Assembly: GCA_003971905.1 (NCBI GenBank)
Contig: RSEE01000036.1
Location: 434,001-498,000 of the forward strand
Direction: 5' to 3'
Origin: Moniliella sp. 'wahieum'
Lineage: Eukaryota > Basidiomycota > Moniliellomycetes > Moniliellales > Moniliellaceae
Length of the DNA stretch: 64,000 bases
The position numbers and the translations under genes are program-made. Shown in pieces: positions 1,632 through 62,439 of the stretch. How positions within the stretch are numbered: the stretch's first letter is position 1; each line of letters starts with the position of its first letter. The notes below the pieces were generated by a model. That model was given only the letters and a program-made list of their open reading frames with translations. It did not search any database and was not told the DNA's origin.

Positions 1632-4600
1632 TTAGTAGGGGGGAGGGCTGTACGGCCGCTGCGCGTCGTCGGGCATGTTGCCTTCAGGAGGGAGGGAGAG
1701 GTGCAAGCCAAGGGCGCGGTTGAGGATCGAGTAGGCCACCAAACCGGTCCATCCGGTCTGGTGGGACGCGCCCAAACCGCGGCCCGTGTCCCCATCAAAG
1801 TACTCTGGCACCGAAACGAGGGGGGAAAAGTACGGGTTAAAGTCCAAGAGGTCGGTGCCGCCATTGAGCGGACGTCGGCCCTGGGCGTCAGGAGCAAACA
1901 GGCTTATCAGCCGCCGCTCCAACTCGGACGCTACCTCGGCGAGGGTAAGGTACTTGCCCGATCCGGTGGGCAACTCAATGGTAAAGGAAGAACCATAGTA
2001 GGCATGGAACTTGAATAACGACTCGATCAACAAAAAGTTGGTCGCAATCCAAATCGGACCGCGCCAGTTCGAGTTGCCACCAAACATGCCCGATTTGGAG
2101 TCGGCCGGCCAGTACTGCACACCAAAGGACTGGCCATCGATCCAGACTTGCCACGGATGGTCCAGGTGGTACTTGGACAGGGACCGAATGCCATGATCCG
2201 ACAAGAACTCGGTCTCGTCCAGCATGCGGCGCAAGATGCGCTCCAGCCGCTCGCGCGACACGAGCGCCAACAGCCGCTTGTCGCCTTGGCCTACTACACG
2301 CATGTTGGCCATATTGCGCTGGCTGAGCGCAGGACGGTTGTCGACAAACCATTGGAAGCGCTTGGCAAACGAGGGGAAGCGTTCGAGCGCAGAAGGTTCG
2401 ATGGTCAACACGGAAAAGATGGGGATCAAACCGACCAGAGAACGGACATTGACGCGGCGGTATCCAGCCTCGGGCGTCGCGCCGAGTTGAACGGCATCGT
2501 AGTAAAAGCCTTCCTCTTCGTCCCAGAGCGTCAGACCTTGGTTGTCGGCGCCCGGGTAGGTAAGCGCATCGGAAATGAAAAGTGCTCAAAGAACTTGGAT
2601 GCAATGTCCTCGTAGTTGGGGTTGAAGCGAGCCAGCCTAGGGGGAAAGTGAGCCGCGAGGAGAAAGAGAGAAAGAATGATGTTAGAGGAGGCTTTTCTTC
2701 TCCTTGATGGAAACAGAAAAAAAGGGGGGAAAGGACAACGTACTCCAATGCAATGGTAAGCATCGTCAGTGCATAAAACGCCATCCATGCGGTCCCGTCC
2801 GACTGGCGAAGAGTGCCTCCGCCCGGCAACGGCTCGGAGCGGTTGAAAGGTCCAATGTTGTCCAGACCAAGGAAGCCACCTTCAAATACGTTCATGCCTG
2901 AAGCGTCCTTGCGGTTTCTGGGAGAAGAGAGGTCATGTCAGAGTCAAGACAAGAGAGAGTCCCACTCAACTTGTTGGTAAGACGAACGAGGGAAAGATAC
3001 GTACACCCACCACGTAAAGTTGATGAGCAACTTTTGGAACACGCGTTCTAAAAAGTCCACGTCGCGAGTGCCATAGATTTTCTCTTCGATACGATAGACG
3101 GAAGGTGGCCCAAGCGTGTACGGGGGGATTGACATCGTCAAAGTTCCACTCGTAGGCAGGCATAGCCCCATCGGGTTTCATGTACCATTCTCGCGTATAC
3201 ACGTCCAGCTGCGACTTGGCAAACGCTGGATCGACCAAAGCGAGCGGAATGGTATGGAAGGCCAAATCCCACAGCGCTGGGTACGGGTACTCAAACTTGT
3301 CTGGGACCGAGATGACATCGTACATGTACAGGTTGGTCCAGGACGCATTACGGTTGTTGGCCCGATGGGGCGGCGGCGGCGGCTGGCCTGGGTCGCCGGT
3401 AATCCAAGGACGTTGGACAAAGTAGTAAAACTGCTTGCTCCACAACATGCCTGCCAACAATTGACGAAGCACATTGGCCGAGTCGCCGGTCACTTGCTTG
3501 CCCGACAAGCGATCGTAAAATTCGTCCGCCTCGGCCCGGCGCTCATCCATCGTCGCATCCAACGCATCGTCATCGTCAATTGACTTGTCCGTTGCAATCG
3601 TGTGCGGGGTCAACTTGAGCCGCATCACGACACAACCGCCTCGAGCGGGCACTTGTTTGAAAAAGTAGTGAGCGCCCACTTTTGTTCCTGTTAGGTTGGG
3701 ATTGACATAGTTCGTGTCCGGTGCTGCGCCTTCGGGACGGTGGGAGGGGATGAGGTGGTCATGAAAGGCGTCCTTGGAATAAATGTGGGGGTTTTCACCC
3801 TGATACAGACGGGCATAGTTGGTGTCGTTCTCGGTAACAAAAATGTCGGTTTCACCTCTTCCTCCGACACAAGCTTGGGGTAGGACTGGCCGTCCCATGG
3901 TTCCGCCGGGGCCGGGGACGAGTGCGCATACCAAAAGTAGCGGCCCAACGTGGGGTGATCCAGCTGCACGGCTCCCTCGGCAGCTAGGATGAGCGAGGGC
4001 TTGTCCTCTGGCTCGTGGACCGACCAGGCCCACGTGTTGCGAAACGTGGCCTGAGGCACCAAGTGCAGGTCGGCAGGTTCGGGCCCACGGTTGAAGGCGG
4101 TGATGCGCATTGAGATGGCATTCTCCTCATCGGCATCCTTGGCATACTCGACCAGAATGTCCCAGTACTTGTTATCCTCAAACGCGTCCGTGTCGGTGAT
4201 CTCAAACTCGGGTACCTCGCGCGAGCGCTGGCCATTCTCACGGAGCAACTCGTCGTACGGGTACGCGCACTGCGGGTATTTGTACATGTACTTCATGTAC
4301 GAGTGACTCGGCACATTGTCAAGGTAATAATACAGCTCCTTGACATCTTCACCATGATTGCCCTCTTGATTGGCAAGGCCAAACGCACGTTCCTTGAGGA
4401 TCGGGTCCTTGCCGTTCCACAGTGCGAGGGTGATGGCAAGTCGACCATGGTTGTCAGAAAGTCCACCCAAGCCATCCTCCACTCCCCAGCGGTAGGCACG
4501 CGAGCGTGCATGTTCGTGAGGGAAGTAGGCCCAGGCATTTCCGTCTTCCGAGTAATCCTCGCGCACCGTGGCCCACTGGCGCTCCGGAGTATAGGGCCCC

Positions 4601-7356: not shown

Positions 7357-9916
7357 TTATCGTCGGCCTGCCGCCTTGGTAGCCTTGGTAGCCTTGGCAC
7401 GCGGCCGCGACCCGGCCGCCAACGGGTTGGCGGGCACACCGCGAGCTCGTTTAGCCTGGCTTGGACCAGGAGCCGAGGAAGCGGCGGCCGGTCGTTTGCC
7501 TGGAGCGGTCAAACGGGTTCGAGCGCGGGGTGCGGACGTGGACATGTCCCCTACCCCTGGGGCGGCAACAGCACCTGTCATGTCCGCTTCCGTCCTGGCC
7601 AGTCTCGGTGGTGGCAGCACTCTGGGCCTCGGCGGCCTGGTTGGTAGCCCGGGCAGCTTGCATCGCCCTGCGCACAGTAGCGCGTTGGGGCTCGACGCGC
7701 GCCACGTCGATCCAATCGGACAGTTCACGCGGGAGGAGGGTGAGAGCGGTGGTGTACACGTCGTGGCGGGCATCCACATGACCATGCGCGACCAACGCGG
7801 CCAACAAGTCCGTCTCGGTAATCGTCACGGCCCTTGTTGAGCTCGTTTCGTTCGGGCGACGCAACCGAGCCCGAGCTGCCGCCGACACGTCACGCGCTAA
7901 CGCACCAAAAAACGCATCGGACGCATCCTGCACCGCTGTCAAGGCTGCCGGGTCCAAGCGATAGTTGTTTCCGGCCACGGCGGAAAAGAGACGCGTGACC
8001 AGCGTCGCTGGCACCCGATCTCGATCTCGTCGGGTAGGACGACGGGTCGGATTGCGGCGCGCAAGTCGTTGCCTCAACACCCCTCCCACCGATTGATCCG
8101 ACGCCCACGAGCCGTCCGAATCGACTTCGGCTTCGGCTTCCGCTCCTGCTTCCCCTTGCTCTCGTGACTCGCCTTCGGGTGGGTAAAGCGTGGTTGCCCC
8201 AGGCGCTTCGTCTTCATCGACTTGGTCAAATTGACCCGGTTCCTCCTCCCCTAGCTCTCCTTCCACCTCTTCAGCCCCCACCCCAGCGGAGAGATCAAGC
8301 ATCCGAGTGGCGGATGCAGCCGTCGCATCTCCCTCGCCCACCGACCTTTCGCCTGAGGTGGCACCTACCCCAGTCAACTGATCGTGGGTGAGGGAGACTT
8401 CCTGTCTGGGATACAGCATTGATGGGTCCTCTGCTTCGCCAAATAGATCCGGAGCATCTTCCAACGCGGGCATTTCGTCTCCCAGTCCATAGAGGTCCGC
8501 CTCGGTAGGTTGGCCTGCCAAACTGGCACCGAGACTGGTGCGTGGCGGAGCGGCGCGGCGGGCCATCTCACTCCCGTCTGCCGTATAGTCGGATTGGGCA
8601 GGGGTTTGTGCCCCTGCACGGGCCGGCACGGCATCTGAGCTGGAAGAGAGGGTGGGAAGAAAGAGGGGGGTGCGGGGCGACCCGACTGGCATCGCCGCCT
8701 CCCAACCGGACTTGCATGGAAAGACGCCGGGAGAGAGCAGCGGACATGGTGCTCAAGTCGGTAGGATCGACGGCCAAGAGACGGGTAAGTTCCTCTTCGG
8801 CCAGACGGTCCCTCTCTCGTTCAGCCTGCTCAGTTGCCTCTTCCTCCTCCCCTTGCTCCCTCGTCTACCCAGCGCACCACGCGGCGAAGTGGACGCCAAC
8901 ACGCGTTCCAGCGCTTGGCGAGCCAGGAGGGAGAGGGCAGATTGAGTTGATCCAACTCCGCCGCCCAGTCGTCCTCGTCCTCGTCCTCGTCTTCGTCTCG
9001 TCCTGGTTGGTGCCCCTCCTACCGGTTCGGCTCCGGTCCAAGCTGAGCCCGGGCCGAGCGGTATGAGTCAAGTCACCGGGCACAGGTGGGCCGGGTGGAG
9101 AAGCGGTGGTCCAGGCTGGATCAACGTTCCGCCAAAGGTCGTGTCCAGCTCGGTTTCCAGCCCCGGCTGCTCGGTGGTTGTTTCCAAGAGACTCAGGTCT
9201 GGCCGCGGAGGAGCTGGAGGCGGAAGAGCAGAGTGTTGGTTAGCCAACCACTGGTAGCAACGAGCAAAAGGTAGGTACGATACGCACGATGGGCCAAGCG
9301 CCACAGTAGGTCAAATGGACTCTCCACTCTGCCTGCGCCGGCACGGAGGGTAGACCGACGGGCGCGCGGCCGCCGTGACTCGGATGCACGACGGATCGCA
9401 GAGCGGGTCAGGGGCGTACGCGCCGTGCCGGGCGTGCGGGCAGCAGGAGTACGGTGTGGGGTGCGGGCGTGGAGGGGCAGGACGCATCGATCTGCAGGGA
9501 AGGATCGGCTGGCTGGCCTTCAGGCGCTGCGGATGGCGGGAAAATATCGCCAAGGGTGCTATCAATCGACAAACGGCTGGCACGCGGACCCAGACGGGCA
9601 GCGGTGGCGAGAGAAGCGGCCGGTTGCGCTGACGCGCGAAGGGGGGTGCCTCCCACGGCGGCGGTAGGTCGCGACGGATGCCCCCCTCGGCGGGCGGAGG
9701 CGCTGCAGCGCCTCCGCCCGCCGGGGGGGCGCGCGCGCGGGGGCTGCGGTGTGGCGCTCGAGGCGCGCACCGAGGGGGTTCGTGCGGTGGAGGGCGGGGG
9801 CGCGGATGCACGGCCATCGGCTCCGTCGGGGCGGACAAGGCTCTGGCGAGTGCGGCGGCGGGCGTGGCCGGGTTGGAGGCGGGGTGGTCGCGGTTGTCGT
9901 TGGCTCGGCCAGCCAT
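7357..9916 (-). CDS. Centromere protein T-like kinetochore protein (histone fold)
   Basis: The C-terminal third is a CENP-T/Cnn1 histone fold: VPATLVTRLFSAVAGNNYRL, LTAVQDASDAFFGALARDV, VTITETDLLAALVAHGHV, ending in the hallmark LLPRELSDWI after the last helix. CENP-T pairs with CENP-W at centromeres and recruits Ndc80/Mis12 through its disordered N-terminus. The middle is acidic and Glu-rich. The tail after the fold is Lys/Arg/Ala-rich, read after a frameshift near 7600, and ends at the TAA at 7357. An upstream helix-rich block (LPSPSWLAKRWNACWRPLRR) lies around 8890-8940. The N-terminal part up to the ATG at 9916 (MAGRANDNRDHP) is Pro/Arg-rich and less certain, with probable frameshifts and an intron near 9250-9290. 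The symbol is left empty because fungal naming varies. Confidence 0.72.
9688..9723. repeat. 36-nt perfect GC-rich palindrome
   Basis: The two 18-nt arms, 9688-9705 and 9706-9723, are exact reverse complements with no loop and centre on CTGCAG. With one wobble the pairing extends to about 9682-9729. It lies in the putative N-terminal coding part of the CENP-T gene and is followed by GC alternation. Confidence 0.95.
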
Positions 9917-51140: not shown

Positions 51141-52281
51141 ATGGCCGCCCCCCCAACAAGCGCCTCTTCCAACCTGTCAGCCCGACCCCGGTCCTGCGCC
51201 ATGCTGCCTCCGACAGTCTGCTAACGGTGGGCACCACCACACTGTCCAGGCCCTCCGCGTTGCCCGAGTGCTGGGGCCACCGCGGTGCCTCGGGTGCCTT
51301 CCCCGAAAACACCATGGCTTCGTTTGATGCCGCTGTGCGGGATGGTGCGGATGGGATCGAGACGGATGTGCACATTACCAAGGACGATGTGATTGTCATG
51401 TTCCACGACTCGGTCCTTGGCCGCACGACGAACGGGTCGGGCAAAATCTCGGCGCAAAACTATGTCGACGGCATTGACCAAGTGCGCACGGTGGAGGAAC
51501 CGGTACAAAAGATTCCCACGTTCAATGAGCTGTGCAATTTCCTCATGCTCCCCGAAAACCGGCACGTCAAGGCCAACATTGATGTCAAGCCCGACAACCA
51601 ACCGGACCGGCTCTTTCGTCTGATGAAGGGCGTGGTGAGCCAGCATGAGGGTATGAGACGGAGCTGGCGCCTCGGTTGGTGTTGGGTCTGTGGCATCCCA
51701 AGTTCATTGCAGCTGCCATTGAGCACGTCCCCACCCTGCGCCGCATCCACATTGGTGGCAGCCCTTCCAAAGCGCGCAAATACTTCTGGGGAAGGATGTG
51801 ACGGCTTTAGCATGTCTTTTGCCTCGCTCGTCGGAGCGGAGGGCCAGCGTTTCCTTCGCGACGCTCAGGCCGAAGGGAAGGACGTGTATGTCTGGACGGT
51901 CAACCGGCCCGACGAGATGGTCGAGGCGACTCGGTGGGGCGTCAGAGCCGTCTTGACCGACAACACAGACCTGTTCCAGCGCTTGCGCCATGAGATGCGG
52001 CAAGACTTTAAGAAAATTTACAAGCGGGATGTGTCTGCTCTCTTCCGCTGGACCACCTGGCAGTACTATGGGTGTGCCCCAGTTCCTTATTCAGCGCAAC
52101 TGGCATGCGGACGCCGAGCAGCGGGCCGGGAGACGTTTGACGAGGCCCAAGCTCGCGATCATCAACGCTCTACCAATGCGTCCCCCGTTCCTTCCGAGGA
52201 TACATGCATTGGCACTCCCCCACCAAGGCCATGGCCGAAACCAACTTGCCTATGCCCTCGGCAGTGCCGTTGGCGGCCTAA
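51141..52281 (+). CDS. GDPD-family lipase (Pgc1-like phosphatidylglycerol phospholipase C)
   Basis: A glycerophosphodiester phosphodiesterase barrel. The chain MAAPP..KRLFQPVSPTPVLRHA leads to the catalytic CWGHRGASGAFPENTMASFD (HRGA...PEN), then DGADGIETDVHITKDDVIVM with the ExD metal site and MFHDSVLGRTTNGSG with the second His. VKANIDVKPDNQPDRLFRLM and KDVYVWTVNRPDEMVEATRW follow, with ending RAVLTDNTDLFQRL. The arrangement resembles yeast Pgc1, which degrades phosphatidylglycerol. A C7 run (51148-51154) just after the ATG shifts the frame, and further shifts occur near 51650, 51800 and 52070. The last frame, ending NLPMPSAVPLAA-stop at 52281, is preferred. Pgc1 is tail-anchored; no clear anchor is seen here. 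Confidence 0.82.
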
Positions 52282-52605
52282 TAGAGCCCCATCCCCTTCC
52301 TTGTACCCCCAAACCCCAGCCTCGTTATTTTTCCTTGACCCTATACCATAACCCTCCCTAATTCTCGATCCCCTCCTCAAGGAAACCGCATGTACTTCAA
52401 GCCCACTGTCCGTCAAAAGTCGTGAACATACCGTACCGTCTTTCCTCTCATTCTGTCCACACCTCTTCAAGGCCATATAAGCTGTCAGGCAACTGCATAG
52501 CAGCGAGGGAGCCCCTTGGCCTGCGACAAAAAAATATAGTGTACAGTACATTCTGCACAGCAGTCTGCTTGGCACCGTGAGGTTGCAGAAGGAAGACGAG
52601 GCGAA

Positions 52606-54015: not shown

Positions 54016-54827
54016 TCAATCCATTACCAGACCACCGTCAACCACCAAGTTTTGGCCCGTCACGCCCCGAGACCAGGGGTGAGCGAAAAAGAGGCAGGCG
54101 TCGGCCATTTCCTCTGGCGTCGTCACCTGGCCCAGGGGCTGCTGGCTGCAATGGCATCAAACACAGCTGCGGGGGTAGCTGAGGAGGCATCGGTAGTACG
54201 AAGCAAGCCGCCACTGACCATGTTGACGGTGATGTGGTCTGGGCCCAGGTCCTTGGCCATGGTACGTGTCAGGGCAAGCAACGCGCCCTTGGCCAGGACA
54301 TAGTCGTGGTACGGTACGACCGGGTTTTGCAGCAGGTTGGTGCCAATGTTGATGATGCGTCCGTACCCGGCTTGTCGCATGCCCGGTAAGGCAGCCTGCA
54401 CCACATTCAGTGCCCCCTGCACCGTTCCGTCCAGTTGCAATTGCACCTGGTCCCACTTCAACTCGTCGATGCGAGGGCGAGCGTCGCCATTGAACGTAAA
54501 GCGGGGCAGAGCACTGTTGACGACCGTTGTGATGGGCCGGCCGAGGTGCTGCTCGACACGAGCAAAGAGTGCCTCCACCTCGTTCTTTTTCGACACGTCG
54601 GCTCGCTGGATTAAAGGCGGACCTGTCTCGCCCGCTTGATGCGCTTGGTGCATCTGTTCATACAAGCCAAAGGCCATTTCACTGTTGTGAGCAAAGTTGA
54701 TCACCACCGTCGCACCCTGAGCCAAGAAGGCCTTGGCAATCGCGCGTCCCAGACCGCGAGAGGAACCGGTGACGAGCACCACTTGCTCTGCCAGTGCAGG
54801 CGAGGTGGAGGGGGCGGGGTGTGTCAT
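54016..54827 (-). CDS. Short-chain dehydrogenase/reductase, FabG-like
   Basis: A classical SDR of ~270 aa that reduces a carbonyl with NAD(P)H. From the ATG at 54827: VVLVTGSSRGLGRAIAKAFL (cofactor TGxxxGxG), ADVSKKNEVEALFARVEQHL, VVNSALPRFTF in place of the usual NNAG, RIINIGTNLLQNPVVPYHDY and YVLAKGALLALTRTMAKDLG (YxxxK). The usual catalytic Ser position reads IGTNL, which bacterial members of this subgroup also show. After one base shift in a C run near 54135 the C-terminus LGQVTTPEEMADACLFFAHP and GVTGQNLVVDGGLVMD-stop completes the fold. The blocks recall bacterial 3-oxoacyl reductase-like SDRs, which raises possible horizontal transfer. The start codon lies 2 bp from a repeat flanking the gag unit. 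Confidence 0.88.
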
Positions 54828-54869: not shown

Positions 54870-55052
54870 TATTCGGCAGCTTTTGCACGGCGGTTTTTAA
54901 GGGTGCGGCAATCATTAATCAGCTGTGGCGTGTCCCGGCCGGTTGTGGAAATTGCAGTATTCCGAGCCCTCGGCTTTGGGCACTCGCACGCGCTTATGGG
55001 GCTTGGCTGCCGGGGGCGCGGGTGCGAGTACCTTGTCATCGTAGCACAGGTT

Positions 55053-55057
55053 GTCCA
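55053..55057. repeat. Target site duplication, left copy (GTCCA)
   Basis: Directly precedes the 5' LTR and is identical to 59666-59670. Confidence 0.9.
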
Positions 55058-55202
55058 TGTTAGAGGGTACTGCTAGGGTTCTCCTGCACGGCCCTCAATG
55101 GATCGGTGACGCTCGCCTAGCCGAGCGGAAGCGTTCCGCTCGCAGGCCGCGCACGCCCTGCTCGCTCCATCTCCCTTCTCTCTCTCCTTTCTCCTTCCCT
55201 TC

Positions 55203-55258
55203 AGACGTTGCTTGAAGACTTGTGGCTCACCACTTTGCCTTCACGCCTTGTCTGAAGG
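55203..55258 (+). repeat. 56-bp internal LTR direct repeat, copy 1
   Basis: The unit starts AGACGTTGCTTGAAGACTTG and ends CTTGTCTGAAGG. It is repeated at 55301-55356 and in the 3' LTR, where the second copy lacks one G. The spacing of about 98 bp suggests a promoter or R-region duplication. Confidence 0.93.
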
Positions 55259-55300
55259 TACGCCTCTGCTTCCTTTCTTGACCTGTTGCTCCTCACAATG

Positions 55301-55356
55301 AGACGTTGCTTGAAGACTTGTGGCTCACCACTTTGCCTTCACGCCTTGTCTGAAGG
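55301..55356 (+). repeat. 56-bp internal LTR direct repeat, copy 2
   Basis: Identical to copy 1 in this LTR. Confidence 0.93.
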
Positions 55357-55410
55357 CTGCTTTGCAGCTGATCCATAGGATCGCGAGTGCTCTCAAGTCG
55401 CACTCTAGCA

Positions 55411-55417
55411 GGTTATG
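55411..55417 (+). promoter_or_regulatory. Putative primer-binding site GGTTATG
   Basis: It immediately follows the LTR. GGTTATG is complementary to CATAACC of the initiator tRNA-Met anticodon loop, the priming mode known for copia and Ty5. Only 7 nt match, and the ORF1 ATG is contained within it. Confidence 0.6.
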
Positions 55418-57808
55418 TCGCCCTTATCTTCTGCCTCTGCGCATTCTGCGCACCCGGTTTCCTCGCCTCGCGACATTGTGGAAGCGTATGTTCGTCGTGG
55501 CGAGTTTGACCCCAACTCCCAAGTCGAGATAGCCCCTGGCACGACAGCGAAGTGGCCGGCTTTTCGCATCAAGGGCACGACTTATGCTTGGGCTCAACTG
55601 AGCGTCGTTCTTTCGGACGTTGACGAGGACGTCGCTGCCAAGTTCATCCTGGAAGTCATTCCTACCATTCGCCACTGGGGTATGCCGATGAGTGGCATCG
55701 CCTCCCCGCTCCCTGGTTCTGCAGTGGCAGACAAGGACTCTATTGTGGCTGATATCATTACCGACTACAATAAGGGCCATGGTGGCGAAAACTTCTTGCT
55801 CACACCGACCGACTTCTATGTTGCCTACGTCTTTTATACCAAGTCTCATCGCTTCTCCACTTTTGAGGACTTGCAGAAGGCAATCTTTCGCCATATCAAG
55901 GCAGTGCGTAATGCTTGGAAACTGTACGAGGACAATCAGGCTTCCAAACACCGTGTCGATCTGAAGCGTCGTGCCATGCGTGACATGCTCCTCGACCCAG
56001 CGGACTGTATCAGAGAGCCCCAAGGTGTGGTCGTGTCTGGCCCCAAGGATGTGGATTGCTCTCGTGATTGCACTGGTGGAGAGGGTAAACCTCTGGTTGC
56101 AGCACCACTCGTTGACGAGCCTTTCCCGGCTCGTGGTGCCAGCGAGCCAGCGGAACACCTTGCTTCGCCCGCGTGTGAGCCAGTTGCTGTCGCCCATGAG
56201 CCTCTGGGCAAGATGCCACGCGTTGGTCCTGATTTACTGACGATGCATTCCGCTAGTCCCAAGTCCGGGGCTGAGTTAGCTGCTGTTGGGTATGACCCTG
56301 TTGCAGCAATGGCATCTGTCGGCCCGGACTTACCCCCAGCGGGTGGTGACTATGTGTCACGGGAGGTGCATTCCCCCAGGTCCACGCCAGCTGCTATCGC
56401 CAAGCTGGATCCTGTGGCTGCGATGGCATCTGTCGGCCCGGGCTTACCCCCAGCGGGTGGTGACTATGTGTCACGGGAGGTGCATTCCCCCAGGTCCACG
56501 CCAGCTGCTATCGCCAAGCCGGATCCTGTGGCTGCGATGGCATCTGTCGGCCCGGGCTTACCCCCAGCGGGTGACTATGCGTCACGGGAGGTGCATTCCC
56601 CCAGGTCCATGTCAGTTGCTATCGTGGCTCAGGATCAGACAACCGATCAGGCGCTTGGTGGCCCGGTACCCGTTGCAGTCCCGGCGCCTCGTAAAGGGGG
56701 GCTGATTACGCTCGGTGCCTTTGCACCCGATGAAGGGGAAACAATGGCTGACTTGGCACCCGATCAAGGGGGGCCGGTGGCTGGCCTGGCGCCTGATACA
56801 GTGGGGACGGTGGATGGCATGGCACCTGATCAGGCGCTCGGTGGCCTGGTACCTGTTAAAGTCCAGGCGCCTGGCCAAGGGGGGCCGATGGCGCTTGGTG
56901 CCTCTTCACCCGATGAAGAGGAAACGATGGCTGGCCCGGTACCCGATGAAGGGGGGCCGGTGGTTGGCCTAGCGTCTGACAAAGGGGGGCCGGTGGTTGG
57001 CTTGGCACCCTATCAAGGGGGGTCGGTGGTTGGCCTAGCGTCTGACAAAGGGGGGCCGGTGGATGGCATGGCGTCCGACCAGGCGCTTGGTGGCCCGGTT
57101 CCCATTGACGTCCATCAGGCACCCGACCAAGGGGGGCCGATAGCGTGTGGCACTATTGGCCAGGCGCCCGACAAAGGGGGGCCGACCGCGTGTGGTGCCA
57201 TTGGCCAAGCGCCTGACGAAGGGGGGCCGATAGCGTGTGGTGCTATTGGCCAGGCGCCCGACAAAGGGGGGCCGACCGCGTGTGGTGCCATTGGCCAAGC
57301 GCCTGACGAAGGGGGGCCGATAGCGTGTGGTGCTATTGGCCAGGCGCCCGACAAAGGGGGGCCGATGGCGTGTGGACGTGTCGGCCTGGTGCCTGACCAA
57401 GGGGGACCGATGTCGCGCGCTGCTATTGGCCGAGCGTCCGATCAAGGGGGGCCGATGGCGTGTGGCGGTGTCGACCTGGCGGCTGGACATGGAGAATTAA
57501 CGGTCGCCGAGCTTGCGGACAAGCTTTGCACGGTCGGCCTAGCACCATACGCAGGGAAGGCGATTGCCGCTGTGTCAGAGCTTGCGGCCATCGACGGGAT
57601 GCGGGAAAAAGGGGGGCTGCCCCCGTCCTTCCGCACATGCATTTACGCGCCCGGACCACCTTGCCTTACTGTTCCCTCCCCCACCCACCCTTTTCAGCGA
57701 TACTCACCATGTGTTGGCAGGCCTGCCTGTTCCAAATTGCGTATGGGCACGGTACCGATCCTCAGGCACACATTGTCATGTCGGGAGAGAATATCGATAC
57801 TGACCTGA
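55415..57808 (+). CDS. ORF1 of the LTR element, 797-aa repeat protein of unknown function
   Basis: The uninterrupted frame starts at the ATG inside the primer-binding site (MSPLSSASAHSAHPVSSP). Residues 1-190 are globular-looking: DIVEAYVRRGEFDPNSQVEI, YAWAQLSVVLSDVDEDVAAK, FLLTPTDFYVAYVFYTKSHR, DLQKAIFRHIKAVRNAWKLY, ending in a basic helix, which could be a Gag-like or captured domain. Residues ~290-410 contain three 38-aa repeats (DPVAAMASVGPGLPPAGGDY...). Residues ~420-690 are degenerate PDxGGPxxxxxA units, with 15-aa copies (GQAPDKGGPTACGAI) toward the end. No protease, RT, integrase or zinc knuckle is visible. Its intactness contrasts with the frameshifted host genes around it. Function unknown. 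Confidence 0.8.
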   Translation: MSPLSSASAHSAHPVSSPRDIVEAYVRRGEFDPNSQVEIAPGTTAKWPAFRIKGTTYAWAQLSVVLSDVDEDVAAKFILEVIPTIRHWGMPMSGIASPLPGSAVADKDSIVADIITDYNKGHGGENFLLTPTDFYVAYVFYTKSHRFSTFEDLQKAIFRHIKAVRNAWKLYEDNQASKHRVDLKRRAMRDMLLDPADCIREPQGVVVSGPKDVDCSRDCTGGEGKPLVAAPLVDEPFPARGASEPAEHLASPACEPVAVAHEPLGKMPRVGPDLLTMHSASPKSGAELAAVGYDPVAAMASVGPDLPPAGGDYVSREVHSPRSTPAAIAKLDPVAAMASVGPGLPPAGGDYVSREVHSPRSTPAAIAKPDPVAAMASVGPGLPPAGDYASREVHSPRSMSVAIVAQDQTTDQALGGPVPVAVPAPRKGGLITLGAFAPDEGETMADLAPDQGGPVAGLAPDTVGTVDGMAPDQALGGLVPVKVQAPGQGGPMALGASSPDEEETMAGPVPDEGGPVVGLASDKGGPVVGLAPYQGGSVVGLASDKGGPVDGMASDQALGGPVPIDVHQAPDQGGPIACGTIGQAPDKGGPTACGAIGQAPDEGGPIACGAIGQAPDKGGPTACGAIGQAPDEGGPIACGAIGQAPDKGGPMACGRVGLVPDQGGPMSRAAIGRASDQGGPMACGGVDLAAGHGELTVAELADKLCTVGLAPYAGKAIAAVSELAAIDGMREKGGLPPSFRTCIYAPGPPCLTVPSPTHPFQRYSPCVGRPACSKLRMGTVPILRHTLSCRERISILT
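56285..56629 (+). repeat. Three 114-bp tandem repeats in ORF1
   Basis: Units of 38 codons (the third lacks one codon) beginning near GACCCTGTTGC / GATCCTGTGGC. Nearly identical between copies 2 and 3, so recent expansion is likely. Confidence 0.9.
57113..57475 (+). repeat. 45-bp tandem repeats in ORF1
   Basis: About eight 15-codon units reading [ND]xGGPxACGxIGQAP, alternating K/E and T/I variants (AAAGGGGGGCC / GAAGGGGGGCC). The alternation suggests a 90-bp higher-order unit. Confidence 0.9.
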
Positions 57809-58665
57809 GGTCCCAAGGCCGGGGCCCACCGACGCAAGCCACCCTAGCTGCCCTTCTTACTTGGTTAGCTAGGGAGGTAATGTGCGGACTCGTTGGCCCT
57901 CTTGTGTGCTCTGCTTTAACGTCTCGCTCTCCCATTGCATCCAACATGATGGGCGGTTCTGACGGTTTCCTATCTGACCCGGGCGGGTGGTATTTTGATC
58001 GTTCCAAGACCACAGGCACCGTTTACGATTGGGGCTACACGGGCGGCTGTGGCAGTTTCTTACATGACTCGGACCAGTGGTACTTTGACCGATCCATGAT
58101 GGGGGACACCGTTTATGTTTTGGGCTACACGGGCAGCGGTGGCACTTTCCTATCTGACCTGGGCGGGGGGTCCTTTGATCGTCCCAAGACAAGTGCTGCT
58201 GTTGACAGTTTCGGTTACACTACTCGATGTGGTAGTTTCCTACTTGACCCGGGCGGGGGGTACTTTGACCGTCTCAAGAGCAGTGGTGCGGTTGACGGTT
58301 TAGGTTACGCTAATGGTTGTAGCCGTTTCCTGTCTGACCCGGGCGGGGGGTACTTTGACCGTCTCAAGAGCAGTGGTGCTGTTGACGGTTTAGGCTACAC
58401 TAATGGTTGTGGCCGTTTCCTACCTGACCCGGGCGCGGGGTACCTTGACCGTTCCAAGATTGGCGGTGCTGTTAACTATGTGGGCTGCATGGGCGGCTAT
58501 GGTTTCCTTTCTGGCCCAAATGGGAGTTTCTTTGGCTGTCTCAAGACGGGAGGCACTGTCTCTAGTGTACGCTACATGGGCAGCCGTTGCACTTTCATCC
58601 CTGACCCGGGCCCGGAAGACTTTGGTCGCTCCTTTGCCAGCGGTGCTGCTTGCGAAGTGTACTGA
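57709..58665 (+). CDS. ORF2 of the LTR element, 318-aa glycine-aromatic repeat protein
   Basis: The frame is -1 relative to ORF1 and overlaps its end by 100 nt. The ATG at 57709 opens MCWQACLFQIAYGHGTDPQA; GGSDGFLSDPGGWYFDRSKT starts a run of about eight 30-aa units of the form GSFLxDPGGGYFDRxKSSGA then VDGLGYTNGC. The regular Gly, Tyr/Phe and Asp spacing suggests a repeated beta structure or adhesive protein; nothing matches known retroelement enzymes. It may be a separate protein or be joined to ORF1 by frameshifting or splicing. The region upstream of 57709 in this frame is also open, but only as a shadow of ORF1. Function unknown. Confidence 0.7.
   Translation: MCWQACLFQIAYGHGTDPQAHIVMSGENIDTDLRSQGRGPPTQATLAALLTWLAREVMCGLVGPLVCSALTSRSPIASNMMGGSDGFLSDPGGWYFDRSKTTGTVYDWGYTGGCGSFLHDSDQWYFDRSMMGDTVYVLGYTGSGGTFLSDLGGGSFDRPKTSAAVDSFGYTTRCGSFLLDPGGGYFDRLKSSGAVDGLGYANGCSRFLSDPGGGYFDRLKSSGAVDGLGYTNGCGRFLPDPGAGYLDRSKIGGAVNYVGCMGGYGFLSGPNGSFFGCLKTGGTVSSVRYMGSRCTFIPDPGPEDFGRSFASGAACEVY
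57950..58660 (+). repeat. 90-bp tandem repeats in ORF2
   Basis: About eight 30-codon units; copies near 58236 and 58326 are almost identical, others diverged. Confidence 0.9.
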
Positions 58666-58881
58666 TCACCTACAAGGTACTTTCGAACCATCGTTGACGC
58701 TGGTCCTCGTGACGGTTGGACCAGTCGTCATCCTTTTTCTGTCCTGAATTTGGTCCTTTTCTCCTTTTCATGGCTGTGCCAAATTTGACTTGTTGGTTTC
58801 TTTTCAAGTTGAATTGCCTTCTATGGTTCTACTCGACTCGACCTCCAACTCTACGTTTTTACTGTTCGACTTTGGCTTCGG

Positions 58882-59160
58882 TTCGACTTGGCATATGTTG
58901 TCTATATCTCCAAGTTGCATCGATCTCTATGACTTTCACAGCTTCCTTACCTGCACACGTTCAACATCCTCTTTCGGCTTGGAACATGTTGTTTCTACCT
59001 CCAAGTTGAATCGACCTCTATGATTTCTTACGCTTCCTCCCTCATCCGTTGAACATCCTGTTTCGACTTGGAACATGTTGTTTATACTTCCAAGTTGAAT
59101 TGACCTCTGTGACTTTCTACGCTTCCTCCTTACCTCCATGCGTTGAATATACTGTTTCTC
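58882..59160 (+). repeat. ~90-bp non-coding tandem repeats before the 3' LTR
   Basis: Three units starting TTCGACTTGG / TTCGGCTTGG at 58882, 58973 and 59062, each containing CATGTTGT...CCAAGTTG(A/C)AT; a partial fourth begins near 59155. They are T/C-rich and contain no long frame. Confidence 0.9.
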
Positions 59161-59304
59161 TTCCCTTGACTTGGCAACATCGCTTGCCAATTATGTTTTC
59201 CTTTCACTTTTTGACCAGAGGCGTTGGAGACATCCTTTCTTCTTTCATCCATGCCTTGGCCCTTGGCCGAGGACCACCACCACCTGTGGTCTGGCGAGCT
59301 CACC

Positions 59305-59312
59305 GAGGGGGG
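59305..59312 (+). promoter_or_regulatory. Polypurine tract
   Basis: GAGGGGGG ends two bases before the 3' LTR, the position expected for plus-strand priming. Confidence 0.75.
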
Positions 59313-59313
59313 C

Positions 59314-59665
59314 TGTTAGAGGGTACTGCTAGGGTTCTCCTGCACGGCCCTCAATGGATCGGTGACGCTCGCCTAGCCGAGCGGAAGCGTTCCGCTCGCA
59401 GGCCGCGCACGCCCTGCTCGCTCCATCTCCCTTCTCTCTCTCCTTTCTCCTTCCCTTCAGACGTTGCTTGAAGACTTGTGGCTCACCACTTTGCCTTCAC
59501 GCCTTGTCTGAAGGTACGCCTCTGCTTCCTTTCTTGACCTGTTGCTCCTCACAATGAGACGTTGCTTGAAGACTTGTGCTCACCACTTTGCCTTCACGCC
59601 TTGTCTGAAGGCTGCTTTGCAGCTGATCCATAGGATCGCGAGTGCTCTCAAGTCGCACTCTAGCA
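59314..59665 (+). repeat. 3' long terminal repeat
   Basis: 352 bp; it differs from the 5' LTR by loss of one G in the second 56-bp unit. Confidence 0.95.
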
Positions 59666-59670
59666 GTCCA
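59666..59670. repeat. Target site duplication, right copy (GTCCA)
   Basis: Follows the 3' LTR directly; identical to the left copy. Confidence 0.9.
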
Positions 59671-60757
59671 GGGCCTCCAGCATGAGCGCACCGTTGCGCT
59701 GCTCTTGGGCCAGGCTCGAACGGTTGCCATCGGTCGGTAGGGCTTCTGCTAAGGTAAGCCACGCGAGCGCCTCGAGATCGACCCCTGCCTGCTCGCCCAT
59801 GGACACGAGCCGATCAATGCGCATGGCATACTCCCGGGCCGTCTCACTGGGCGCAGGGCGCAGCGCTTTCATTCGGGAGGTGACTTCTCTCTGGGCACGA
59901 AGCTTGTTCATACCGAACTTGGTGCGTAAATTCTTGTATACACCGGACGCTGTCCCACACGCAACCGAGCGTATGGTGTCAACGTCACACCGAGCCATCA
60001 AGACGCGCGCAAGGCGCGCGTCGAGTGTGCGCTCAGCCGGCGTGCTGGGTCCCTTCACGACCAAGTCTTCTAGTCCGAAGCCGGTAAGGATGCTCCGCAG
60101 GTCCATGTCGAAATCAATCCACTTGACCTTCTTCGCGTCAAATGCAGGGATGCACCCGCTCTTGGCAAGGGTCTTGACCAACTCCTTGTGTTCGTCCGAA
60201 ATGGGGGTGGGAGATGCAGTGGTCTGCCCCGGCTGGCTGATCATGCTTGGACTGCCAACTTCGGTGGGGGTGACGTGGCACCACTCGGACACCAAGGACA
60301 ACTGGTTGGGGAGGCGGTGTGCCAAAACGAACTCGGCGAAAGTGTCAAGGTGATCAATGCTGTGGAGGTTGGCGCGCAACTGGGCTTCGCCCCATTCGGG
60401 GAGTGCGCGCTTGAGATGCACCGCGAAGAGAAGCTCGACTCGGCTCTGGTCCGTGTCGGCGACACTGGGGGTGCGGCGGACAGTGTCCGTATCGGCCTTG
60501 GTAAGCTCAGTGGCTACGTCGGTGGTGGGGGGGTGGGCGGCGATGTGGGCGGCCGGCTCGGGGGCGGCGGCGGCTTCGGGTGTTTGCGGCATGGTGGGTG
60601 GCTTCTTGGGGGTTTTGGTTTGGGGACGGGGAGGGCGTCTGTGGAGGTACCGCCGCGGGTTTCGACCATGCGCTGGTTGTGGTTGGGGAGTGGCTGGGCT
60701 CAGGCGGGCAGGCGAGGTCGGCAGTCTCGCTTCTGCACAGAGATAAGGTGGGCTCAA

Positions 60758-60811
60758 CCTATGAAAGGGAGCAGGGATGATCGATGATGCAGATGGTAGT
60801 TGCATTCCAGA
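60758..60811. repeat. Right direct repeat of the gag unit
   Basis: This matches the left copy, with about 10 extra bases after GGGATGAT that contain part of a GATGATCGATGAT motif. Confidence 0.75.
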
Positions 60812-61262: not shown

Positions 61263-62108
61263 CTAGATCCGGACCGACAGGTTCGCACGGTTGGCAAGTG
61301 CGTTCTTGTGGGCCTCGAGACGTTTCTGCAGCACACTCGAGCGGCCTTCGACAACAGCGAGAAGTTCCTTGGCGATACGGTCTTCGTATCGCTTGTCTGT
61401 CCTGCGGAAGGCGGCTCTGAGAATGGCTTTGATTCCCTTGTGGGCCGAGGCAGATTCCGAGAGCGGACGCGGGGTGTGAATGACTTTGGCACCACGCTTG
61501 GTAGATACTGTATCGACATTGGGACTGGCCTGCTTCACTGCCTCAACAAAGAGCGGAAGAGGAGAATCGTTGGTGGCAATGGCAATCCGTTGCAACGCAG
61601 CGGCCACGACGCGCTCTGCTTTGGTGCGGTCGCCGCGTTTGGTCATCATCCCAATCATCTTATTGATGAGTGGGTGCACATCGGGCGCACGTTGAGCCTT
61701 GTGGTCAAACAACGATGGATCCACCTCGTACACCTCCCATGGCAGCGTCGCGACCGCCGGCTGGCTCGGGCGGGCCCAGGCGCCAAAGTCGGCGGGTGGC
61801 TGGCCCAGGTGGTCAAACGCATCGGGGGCAAGACCATCGGCAAAGCTAAGCGGTGCACTCGGATCTTGCGATGTGCGCAAAATCTCCTGGGCCTGGTCGC
61901 TGGCCTTTCGGTCGACAGGAGGAAGGTGCGGGTCACTGTCGGGGGCAACGCCTGCCTCGGCACGATGGCGGCGCTGCGGGCTGGAGTCGTCCGAGAGCAG
62001 GCGAGCAGGGGCGGAGATGTGCAGCGGGCGGAGAGCAGCAGCGCGAGGGACGGCACGCGCGGACGCGGCACGTGGAAACACTCGCCTCGCAGCAAGGCTG
62101 GCCAGCAT
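61263..62108 (-). CDS. RSM7: Mitochondrial small-subunit ribosomal protein uS7m
   Basis: An intact 281-aa frame. The ATG at 62108 (MLASLAARRVFPRAASARAV) starts a typical Arg/Ala-rich presequence; an in-frame upstream ATG would add 15 residues and was not chosen. The uS7 domain occupies the C-terminal half: VHPLINKMIGMMTKRGDRTK, ERVVAAALQRIA, FVEAVKQASPNVDTVSTKRG, IKAILRAAFRRTDKRYEDRI, AKELLAVVEGRSSVLQKRLE. This protein binds the 3' major domain of the mitochondrial SSU rRNA. Divergent from NPC2 with a 330-bp shared promoter. Confidence 0.93.
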   Translation of the reverse strand: MLASLAARRVFPRAASARAVPRAAALRPLHISAPARLLSDDSSPQRRHRAEAGVAPDSDPHLPPVDRKASDQAQEILRTSQDPSAPLSFADGLAPDAFDHLGQPPADFGAWARPSQPAVATLPWEVYEVDPSLFDHKAQRAPDVHPLINKMIGMMTKRGDRTKAERVVAAALQRIAIATNDSPLPLFVEAVKQASPNVDTVSTKRGAKVIHTPRPLSESASAHKGIKAILRAAFRRTDKRYEDRIAKELLAVVEGRSSVLQKRLEAHKNALANRANLSVRI

Positions 62109-62439
62109 GGTGGGGATGGTGGAGCTAGCAACCACGCGGGTGGTGCCGGACACGGCTTGCTCTGAGATGCAACCGGCGGCCCAGCTAGTCAGCTGCGGTG
62201 ACTGCGTGACTGCTTGCCGCCGCCAAGAAGAAATCGGCGGGGTCCGTTACGTCAGCAGCCACTCTCCGTCCCGTCATGGATCATCGATCATCACGCATCG
62301 CGTCACGTGCGGGGTCTTGGGGGGCGCCAGTGAACATTTCACACCCTGGGCCTCCCTGTCCCCCAAGCGGTGCGGGCGCTGGCTGGGCTGCGGCTGGGCC
62401 GCCCCTGTCGCGCCACCACCTCTCGCCACCAACCGCACC
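62109..62439. promoter_or_regulatory. Divergent promoter between RSM7 and NPC2
   Basis: It contains TTACGTCA near 62247, the 14-mer GATCATCGATCATC (reverse complement of GATGATCGATGATC) at 62279-62292, and GTCACGTG at 62302-62309. The 14-mer also occurs at 25572, 50352 and 60776. Confidence 0.5.

What the first reader, a model, noticed from the sequence alone, without database searches (positions are those of the whole stretch)
55058..59665. Recent non-autonomous LTR element carrying unknown repeat proteins instead of pol
LTRs of 353/352 bp with a single-base difference, TSD GTCCA, PBS and PPT define a complete element. The internal 3.9 kb has no RT, integrase, protease or RNase H motif that I can find, yet holds intact ORFs of 797 and 318 aa. 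Known non-autonomous classes (LARD, TRIM, TR-GAG) carry no coding or only gag. An element mobilising long, intact, repeat-rich proteins would be a different cargo type.
Basis: partly seen in the sequence, partly recalled or inferred. Interest (0 to 1): 0.9.

Follow-up and report, generated by a model that had tools for sequence, protein, structure and literature searches.

The report
Hitchhiking Copia element with partial gag
This is a young, defective copy-and-paste jumping gene that appears to move with proteins made by a complete relative in the same genome; its "unknown" protein begins with a piece of that relative's gag protein, so it belongs to a known kind of parasite of parasites.

Summary
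The element is real. It has LTRs of 353/352 bp, a GTCCA target-site duplication, a GAGGGGGG purine tract, ORFs of 797 and 318 aa, and no pol domain that Pfam can see. An empty site for this insertion exists elsewhere in the genome. The interpretation needs correcting. ORF1 residues 1-197 are not unknown: they are the N-terminal leader of the gag of a Copia family in the same genome (zinc knuckle, protease, integrase, RVT_2). That partner also shares the LTR ends, the sequence just inside the 5' LTR and the 3' purine-tract end. Its capsid-to-pol region is replaced here by about 2.7 kb of family-specific repeat DNA. I read nine such copies; 7 of 8 tested have perfect 5-bp duplications. Copies are mosaics of gag 5' segments shared with the autonomous family, as expected if both RNAs meet in one particle. 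I found no purifying selection on ORF1 and no convincing selection on ORF2. Close precedents are wheat RLG_Sabrina_NA variants and RLG_Quinta. New member of a known kind. What the gag leader and repeats do remains open.

The parts
55053..55057 (.). target-site duplication GTCCA, left copy
   Evidence: empty site with one copy at G000:C85:136952-137195
55058..55410 (+). 5' LTR, 353 bp, TG...CA; holds two copies of a ~54-bp hairpin-forming unit 98 bp apart, one of which is missing in some copies of both the non-autonomous and the autonomous family
   Evidence: folded RNA z -3.19
55411..55423 (+). sequence just inside the 5' LTR (candidate primer-binding site GGTTATG...), overlapping the ORF1 start codon; same letters in the partner L070
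   Evidence: host primer tRNA not found
55415..57808 (+). ORF1, 797 aa
55415..56005 (+). ORF1 residues 1-197: N-terminal leader of the gag of the autonomous Copia partner (91% nt to L069; 85% aa at four partner places), upstream of that gag's presumed capsid part and its zinc knuckle
56006..57808 (+). ORF1 repeat part: tandem repeats of 114, 183, 33 and 45 bp; no counterpart in the partner
57709..58665 (+). ORF2, 318 aa from ATG, 30-aa repeats (90 bp), -1 frame relative to ORF1; no Pfam family over cut-off, no homologue found
58666..59304 (+). 3' non-coding part with ~89-91 bp repeats; the last 36 bp before the 3' LTR (59278-59313, with the purine tract) are shared with the autonomous partner
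59305..59312 (+). polypurine tract GAGGGGGG
59314..59665 (+). 3' LTR, 352 bp
59666..59670 (.). target-site duplication GTCCA, right copy

Best explanation
A young, non-autonomous derivative of a Copia (Ty1/copia) retrotransposon, mobilised in trans by a Copia family of the same genome that carries the full set of genes (example: C59 = L070). It is transcribed from its LTR, packaged into particles made of the partner's full-length Gag, reverse-transcribed and integrated by the partner's enzymes using the shared LTR ends, PBS region and polypurine tract (inferred). It keeps the first ~590 bp of gag, and I infer this is mainly because that part of the RNA carries packaging or reverse-transcription signals, as in Ty1. 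The space of capsid-to-pol is filled by self-expanding tandem repeats that happen to be open, or are held open, in the gag frame. Shown: homology, shared ends, duplications, empty site, copy number, mosaic gag segments. Inferred: trans-mobilisation, co-packaging, role of the gag leader.
For: Partner: L070 has LTRs 99% alike, a 644-aa gag with zf-CCHC (E 9.8e-6), Pol_BBD next to an FDSGASH protease motif, and rve (E 9.5e-9); L069 has RVT_2 (E 9.8e-58). The element matches L070 over its positions 1-948 and 4221-4546. Of 18 places with the leader, 9 are the non-autonomous copies read, 6 are followed by RVT_2 on the same strand (by eye) and are near-identical to each other, and 3 (C3, two on C4) are unclassified. 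Five places beside such RVT_2 carry the shared 36-bp 3' end. Insertions: perfect 5-bp TSD in 7 of 8 full copies tested and in the 3 solo LTRs among 5 LTR loci read; an empty site. Mosaics: window 55726-55850 is 125/125 identical to the autonomous copy although the gag part before it is 84.7% and the LTR 62.3%; copy C145 has the window-type LTR (99.6%) but an autonomous-type 55471-55725 (96.9% versus 84.3% to the window). Ty1 cis signals lie in the first 380-580 nt of its RNA (PMC4974528, passages).
Against: The LTR of this subfamily is only ~62-71% like the partner's, and none of the 40 scored window-type LTRs sits in element arrangement with a listed RVT_2 (by eye; 40 of 441 LTR candidates and 150 of 204 RVT_2 candidates scored; one LTR, on C100, has an RVT_2 1 kb away on the other strand), so a closer autonomous partner may be missing. 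Neither of the two autonomous copies read (L069, L070) has an unbroken pol frame in this assembly, though indel errors may explain that. The 400 nt after the 5' LTR does not fold better than shuffles (z -0.29), so a structured packaging signal there has no computational support. The primer tRNA was not found. Expression was not testable.
Confidence: 0.85

Rival explanations
1. ORF1 is a working protein: a Gag-leader fused to a long low-complexity repeat chain that joins or interferes with the partner's particles, so the element carries a useful (selfish or defensive) cargo.
For: ORF1 is open over 797 codons, longer than in 300 of 300 shuffles. Main repeat periods inside the ORFs are multiples of 3 (33, 45, 90, 114, 183) while those in the 3' non-coding part are 89-91. 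In ORF1, 9 of 11 distinct indels of 3 bp or more between copies are multiples of 3 (my count). A wheat precedent encodes Gag plus an unknown domain (PMC11302176, passages).
Against: No purifying selection: gag leader 24 silent of 108 changes against 25.5 expected, repeat part 12 of 51 against 16.2. A wrong frame scored better (24 of 51 against 15.8). Indels of 3 bp or more are multiples of 3 in 5 of 7 distinct events outside the ORFs, and in only 2 of 5 in ORF2 (my count). Other copies have frame breaks, which may be sequencing error.
Confidence: 0.1
2. The gag mosaics arose by gene conversion between integrated copies, not by template switching between co-packaged RNAs.
For: Copies are numerous and similar, and template switching was not observed directly. 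Either process gives the tract pattern.
Against: Nothing found here decides it; PMC11302176 reads the same pattern in RLG_Quinta as template switching (passages).
Confidence: 0.3
3. Two LTRs and a host gene lie together by chance or rearrangement: a single-copy gene, not an element.
Against: Nine copies read, 5-bp duplications in 7 of 8, an empty site, and the internal sequence found only at places of this family.
Confidence: 0.01

Closest known systems
RLG_Sabrina_NA variants of wheat (PMC9744471; passages read)
   Same: Non-autonomous LTR elements in which gag-pro is replaced by unrelated sequence encoding short proteins, four of them without homology to other wheat proteins; mobilised by a partner that shares little sequence.
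   Different: Gypsy superfamily, plant, several hundred copies each. Here Copia, an unnamed 69.5-Mb genome, about ten copies, and the gag leader is kept in frame with the repeats.
RLG_Quinta with partner RLG_Cereba (PMC11302176; passages read)
   Same: Same PBS and LTR ends as the autonomous partner; one ORF encoding gag plus a domain of unknown function; gag variants exchanged by recombination.
   Different: Quinta keeps gag and is a centromeric retrotransposon of wheat (Gypsy, from its RLG code); here only the first ~197 of 644 residues are kept, without the presumed capsid part and the zinc knuckle.
mini-Ty1 donor elements of yeast (PMC4974528; passages read)
   Same: Works like: a Copia-type element without functional proteins moves when a helper supplies them, if it keeps 5' and 3' terminal cis sequences.
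   Different: A laboratory construct; the cis function of the leader here is inferred, not shown.
L070/L069 autonomous Copia family of the same genome
   Same: LTR ends, sequence after the 5' LTR, gag leader, 36-bp 3' end with purine tract.
   Different: Carries the rest of gag with zinc knuckle, protease, integrase and RVT_2; lacks the repeat ORFs.

Membership tests
LTR retrotransposon | two near-identical TG...CA LTRs, TSD, PPT | tested here: met
   empty site
LTR retrotransposon | PBS complementary to a host tRNA | tested here: inconclusive
   GGTTATG present at 55411; no cognate tRNA found; anticodons of the tRNAs not read
Copia superfamily (through the partner) | RVT_2-type RT with integrase upstream of RT | tested here: met
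   partner only: rve in L070 3267-4067, RVT_2 in L069 4101-6158. The window element has no pol
Non-autonomous partner of L070 | shared LTR ends, sequence after 5' LTR and PPT end, with internal coding lost | tested here: met
   LTR body only 62-71% alike
Non-autonomous partner of L070 | movement depends on the partner's proteins | not testable with these tools
   needs expression or particle data
TR-GAG | complete gag retained | tested here: not met
   only residues 1-197 of the 644-aa partner gag; no zinc knuckle; class name from PMC10552921 (passages), definition recalled
LARD | large internal region without coding capacity | tested here: inconclusive
   3.9-kb interior is stop-free over 797 codons, yet no purifying selection on ORF1; definition recalled
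TRIM | miniature size, no coding | tested here: not met
   4.6 kb with long ORFs; definition recalled
BARE-2 type | pol intact, gag disrupted | tested here: not met
   no pol domain; definition as told in PMC9744471 (passages)

The most novel reading that the evidence does not exclude
The element's ORF1 is a Gag-leader fused to an expanding low-complexity scaffold that co-assembles with, or poisons, the autonomous partner's particles, with the leader itself evolving fast in an arms race (N/S ratio 0.92-1.46 in all 8 pairs with changes, including two copies with autonomous-type LTRs; none clearly above neutral). A Copia parasite would then be competing for the particle through a chimeric capsid protein.
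Probability: 0.07. Interest if true: 0.65.

Novelty: new member of a known kind. Interest (0 to 1): 0.3.

Why it matters
It gives a compact, young autonomous/non-autonomous Copia pair outside the cereal systems where such partnerships have been described, with visible recombination between partners. The sharp boundary between what is kept (LTR ends, first ~590 bp of gag, last 36 bp) and what is lost is a natural map of the cis-acting sequence a Copia element may need. It also shows that long open repeat proteins inside an LTR element need not be cargo.

Tried and rejected
Captured host gene: internal DNA and ORF2 were searched in the whole genome and found only at places that carry this family's other parts (C39, C112, C135 and C78 were not read). 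Database homologues: none for the ORF1 leader, the partner's gag or ORF2 (in one search only the 7998 candidates sharing most words were scored). Folds: AlphaFold without an alignment gave mean pLDDT 49.5 (leader) and 33.8 (ORF2), too poor for a fold search, so none was run. Primer tRNA: one exact hit on C79 is not a tRNA; two further patterns gave 4 hits against 17 in the control and 0 hits. Multiples-of-3 indels as proof of coding: rejected, as the non-coding parts behave much alike. Structured packaging RNA in the 400 nt after the LTR: not supported. Host name: not determined (no relatives held).
Full report
Observation. The window is G000:C36:434001-498000 of a 69.5-Mb genome in 223 contigs. 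The element at 55058-59665 is as described: LTRs of 353 and 352 bp that differ by one 1-bp indel, TG...CA ends, GTCCA on both sides, a GAGGGGGG purine tract before the 3' LTR, a 797-aa ORF whose ATG lies 5 bases inside the 5' LTR border, and a second, overlapping ORF of 318 aa. The base missing from the 3' LTR is present in the other 7 copies aligned. Joining the two flanks gives a 247-bp site that occurs uninterrupted, 94% identical, at C85:136952-137195, so this is a clean insertion. Pfam finds no family in ORF1 at E<=1 and one sub-threshold hit in the ORF2 frame.

Other copies. The LTR search listed 40 places at 95-100% identity, 40 of 441 candidates being scored. The 3' non-coding part matches 11 places at 90% or more over most of its length, the window included, and some decayed ones. 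I read nine copies: window, C145, C71, C15, C24 twice, C49, C62 and C18; C112 and C139 were not read. Of the first eight, 7 have perfect 5-bp duplications, each different; C15 has none. For C18 none was established. Of five LTR loci looked at, two belong to full copies and three (L003, L004, L008) are solo LTRs with duplications ACTAG, GTTAC and ATGGG.

What ORF1 begins with. A protein search of the genome with ORF1 residues 1-212 gave 33 matches in 18 places by my count: the nine copies read, six others (C59, C84, C42, C76, and two on C14) and three unclassified (C3, two on C4). The six are followed by RVT_2 matches on the same strand, about 4 kb downstream, 9 kb at C76, where another RVT_2 lies between on the opposite strand (by eye). 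Two were fetched. L070 (C59) has LTRs of about 350 bp, 99% alike, an open gag frame of 646 codons (644 from the ATG) with a zinc knuckle (E 9.8e-6), an FDSGASH protease motif with Pol_BBD (E 3.6e-7), and integrase core (E 9.5e-9); L069 (C84) has RVT_2 (E 9.8e-58). The window element matches L070 only over its first 948 bp (LTR, then gag to ORF1 residue 197) and its last stretch (36 bp with the purine tract, then LTR). The leader, the whole partner gag and ORF2 have no match in the large protein collection.

What replaces capsid and pol. From 56006 to 58665 the element is largely tandem repeats (33, 45, 90, 114 and 183 bp) open in the ORF1 and then the ORF2 frame. In the genome this DNA occurs only at places of this family, so it is not a detectable captured host gene. 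ORF1 is longer than in any of 300 shuffles, but the repeat structure makes that null weak. Substitutions between copies show no purifying selection on ORF1: leader 24 silent of 108 (25.5 expected), repeat part 12 of 51 (16.2 expected); ORF2 has 26 of 70 (19.8 expected; 5.5% of simulations reach it). A wrong frame of the repeat part had a stronger excess (24 of 51, 15.8 expected). The leader's ratio is near neutral in each of the 8 pairs with changes, 0.92 to 1.46, the highest between L070 and a copy on C4 (L023) with an autonomous-type LTR but no RVT_2 listed nearby; the ninth pair, L070 against a C14 copy, had no change. Distinct indels of 3 bp or more are multiples of 3 in 9 of 11 cases in ORF1, 2 of 5 in ORF2 and 5 of 7 outside (my count), so they decide nothing. 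C71 and C15 differ from the window mainly by 1-2 bp indels, and autonomous copies C59 and C84 by 31 substitutions but 55 indels of 1-2 bp: either sequencing error or real decay, so ORF integrity cannot be judged from this assembly. Structure predictions were too poor to use.

Partnership. The gag leader is a mosaic. In the window, 55726-55850 is 125/125 identical to the autonomous copy, 55851-56008 is 92.4%, 55471-55725 is 84.7% and the LTR 62.3%. C145 carries the window-type LTR (99.6%) but the autonomous-type 55471-55725 (96.9%; 84.3% to the window). C24, C49 and C18 share the window's type up to 55725 (about 97%) and have a third type (about 80%) after it. Such exchange needs both RNAs, or both DNAs, to meet; template switching in shared particles is the reading I prefer, gene conversion the rival. 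Against a tight pairing: the LTR body is much diverged, and no window-type LTR among the 40 scored lies in element arrangement with one of the 150 RVT_2 listed (by eye; one on C100 is 1 kb from an RVT_2 on the other strand).

Mechanism. I conclude that the partner supplies capsid, reverse transcriptase and integrase, and that this element supplies only terminal cis sequences. Ty1 offers the model: its minimal mobile RNA keeps 380 nt at the 5' end and 357 nt at the 3' end, and packaging sequences lie within 580 nt of the 5' end (PMC4974528, passages). A structured signal in the 400 nt after the LTR is not supported by folding (z -0.29); most of the LTR, folded alone, is more stable than 100 of 100 shuffles (z -3.19). 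The primer tRNA was not identified (anticodons of the 63 tRNA matches not read).

Comparison. Wheat RLG_Sabrina has at least seven shorter variants in which gag-pro is replaced by different sequences coding for short proteins, four without homology (PMC9744471, passages). RLG_Quinta encodes gag plus a domain of unknown function and recombines its gag (PMC11302176, passages). The present element is the same kind of thing in Copia, with a partial gag. It is not a TR-GAG (gag incomplete), TRIM or BARE-2 type; LARD is undecided. One search of the paper library for a fungal Copia case of this kind listed 10 of 12 papers, none with a matching title (passages of one, PMC3248453), which does not show absence from print; whether the host is a fungus is not known.

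Noticed in passing
L070:2471-2500 and the matching places in L011, L012, L013, L014, L028, L030, L069 (six genomic copies): In the autonomous Copia family gag ends in TAG followed by G in all six copies seen, and in L070 the protease frame follows in the same frame, so pol may be made by stop read-through. The copies are near-identical, so conservation alone proves little.
   Followed up: partly
G000:C14:943965-957600 (L012, L021): Two autonomous copies lie head to tail and appear to share an LTR, a tandem that could come from unequal recombination.
   Followed up: no
window 59660-60805 (-) and 54920-55057: The element sits in a low-copy sequence with an open frame of 381 aa on the other strand and no Pfam family at E<=0.01; the only other place found for the joined flanks is the empty site on C85.
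   Followed up: partly
window 7451-8692 (-): Open frame with a match to the CENP-T histone-fold domain just under Pfam's cut-off (E 4.9e-6), which hints at a kinetochore gene.
   Followed up: no
window 55198-55356: The LTR holds two ~54-bp hairpin units 98 bp apart; copies with one unit occur in both the non-autonomous and the autonomous family.
   Followed up: partly
window 61263-62153 (-), 51227-52351 (+), 54123-54827 (-): Ordinary genes nearby: ribosomal protein S7/S5, glycerophosphodiester phosphodiesterase, short-chain dehydrogenase.
   Followed up: no
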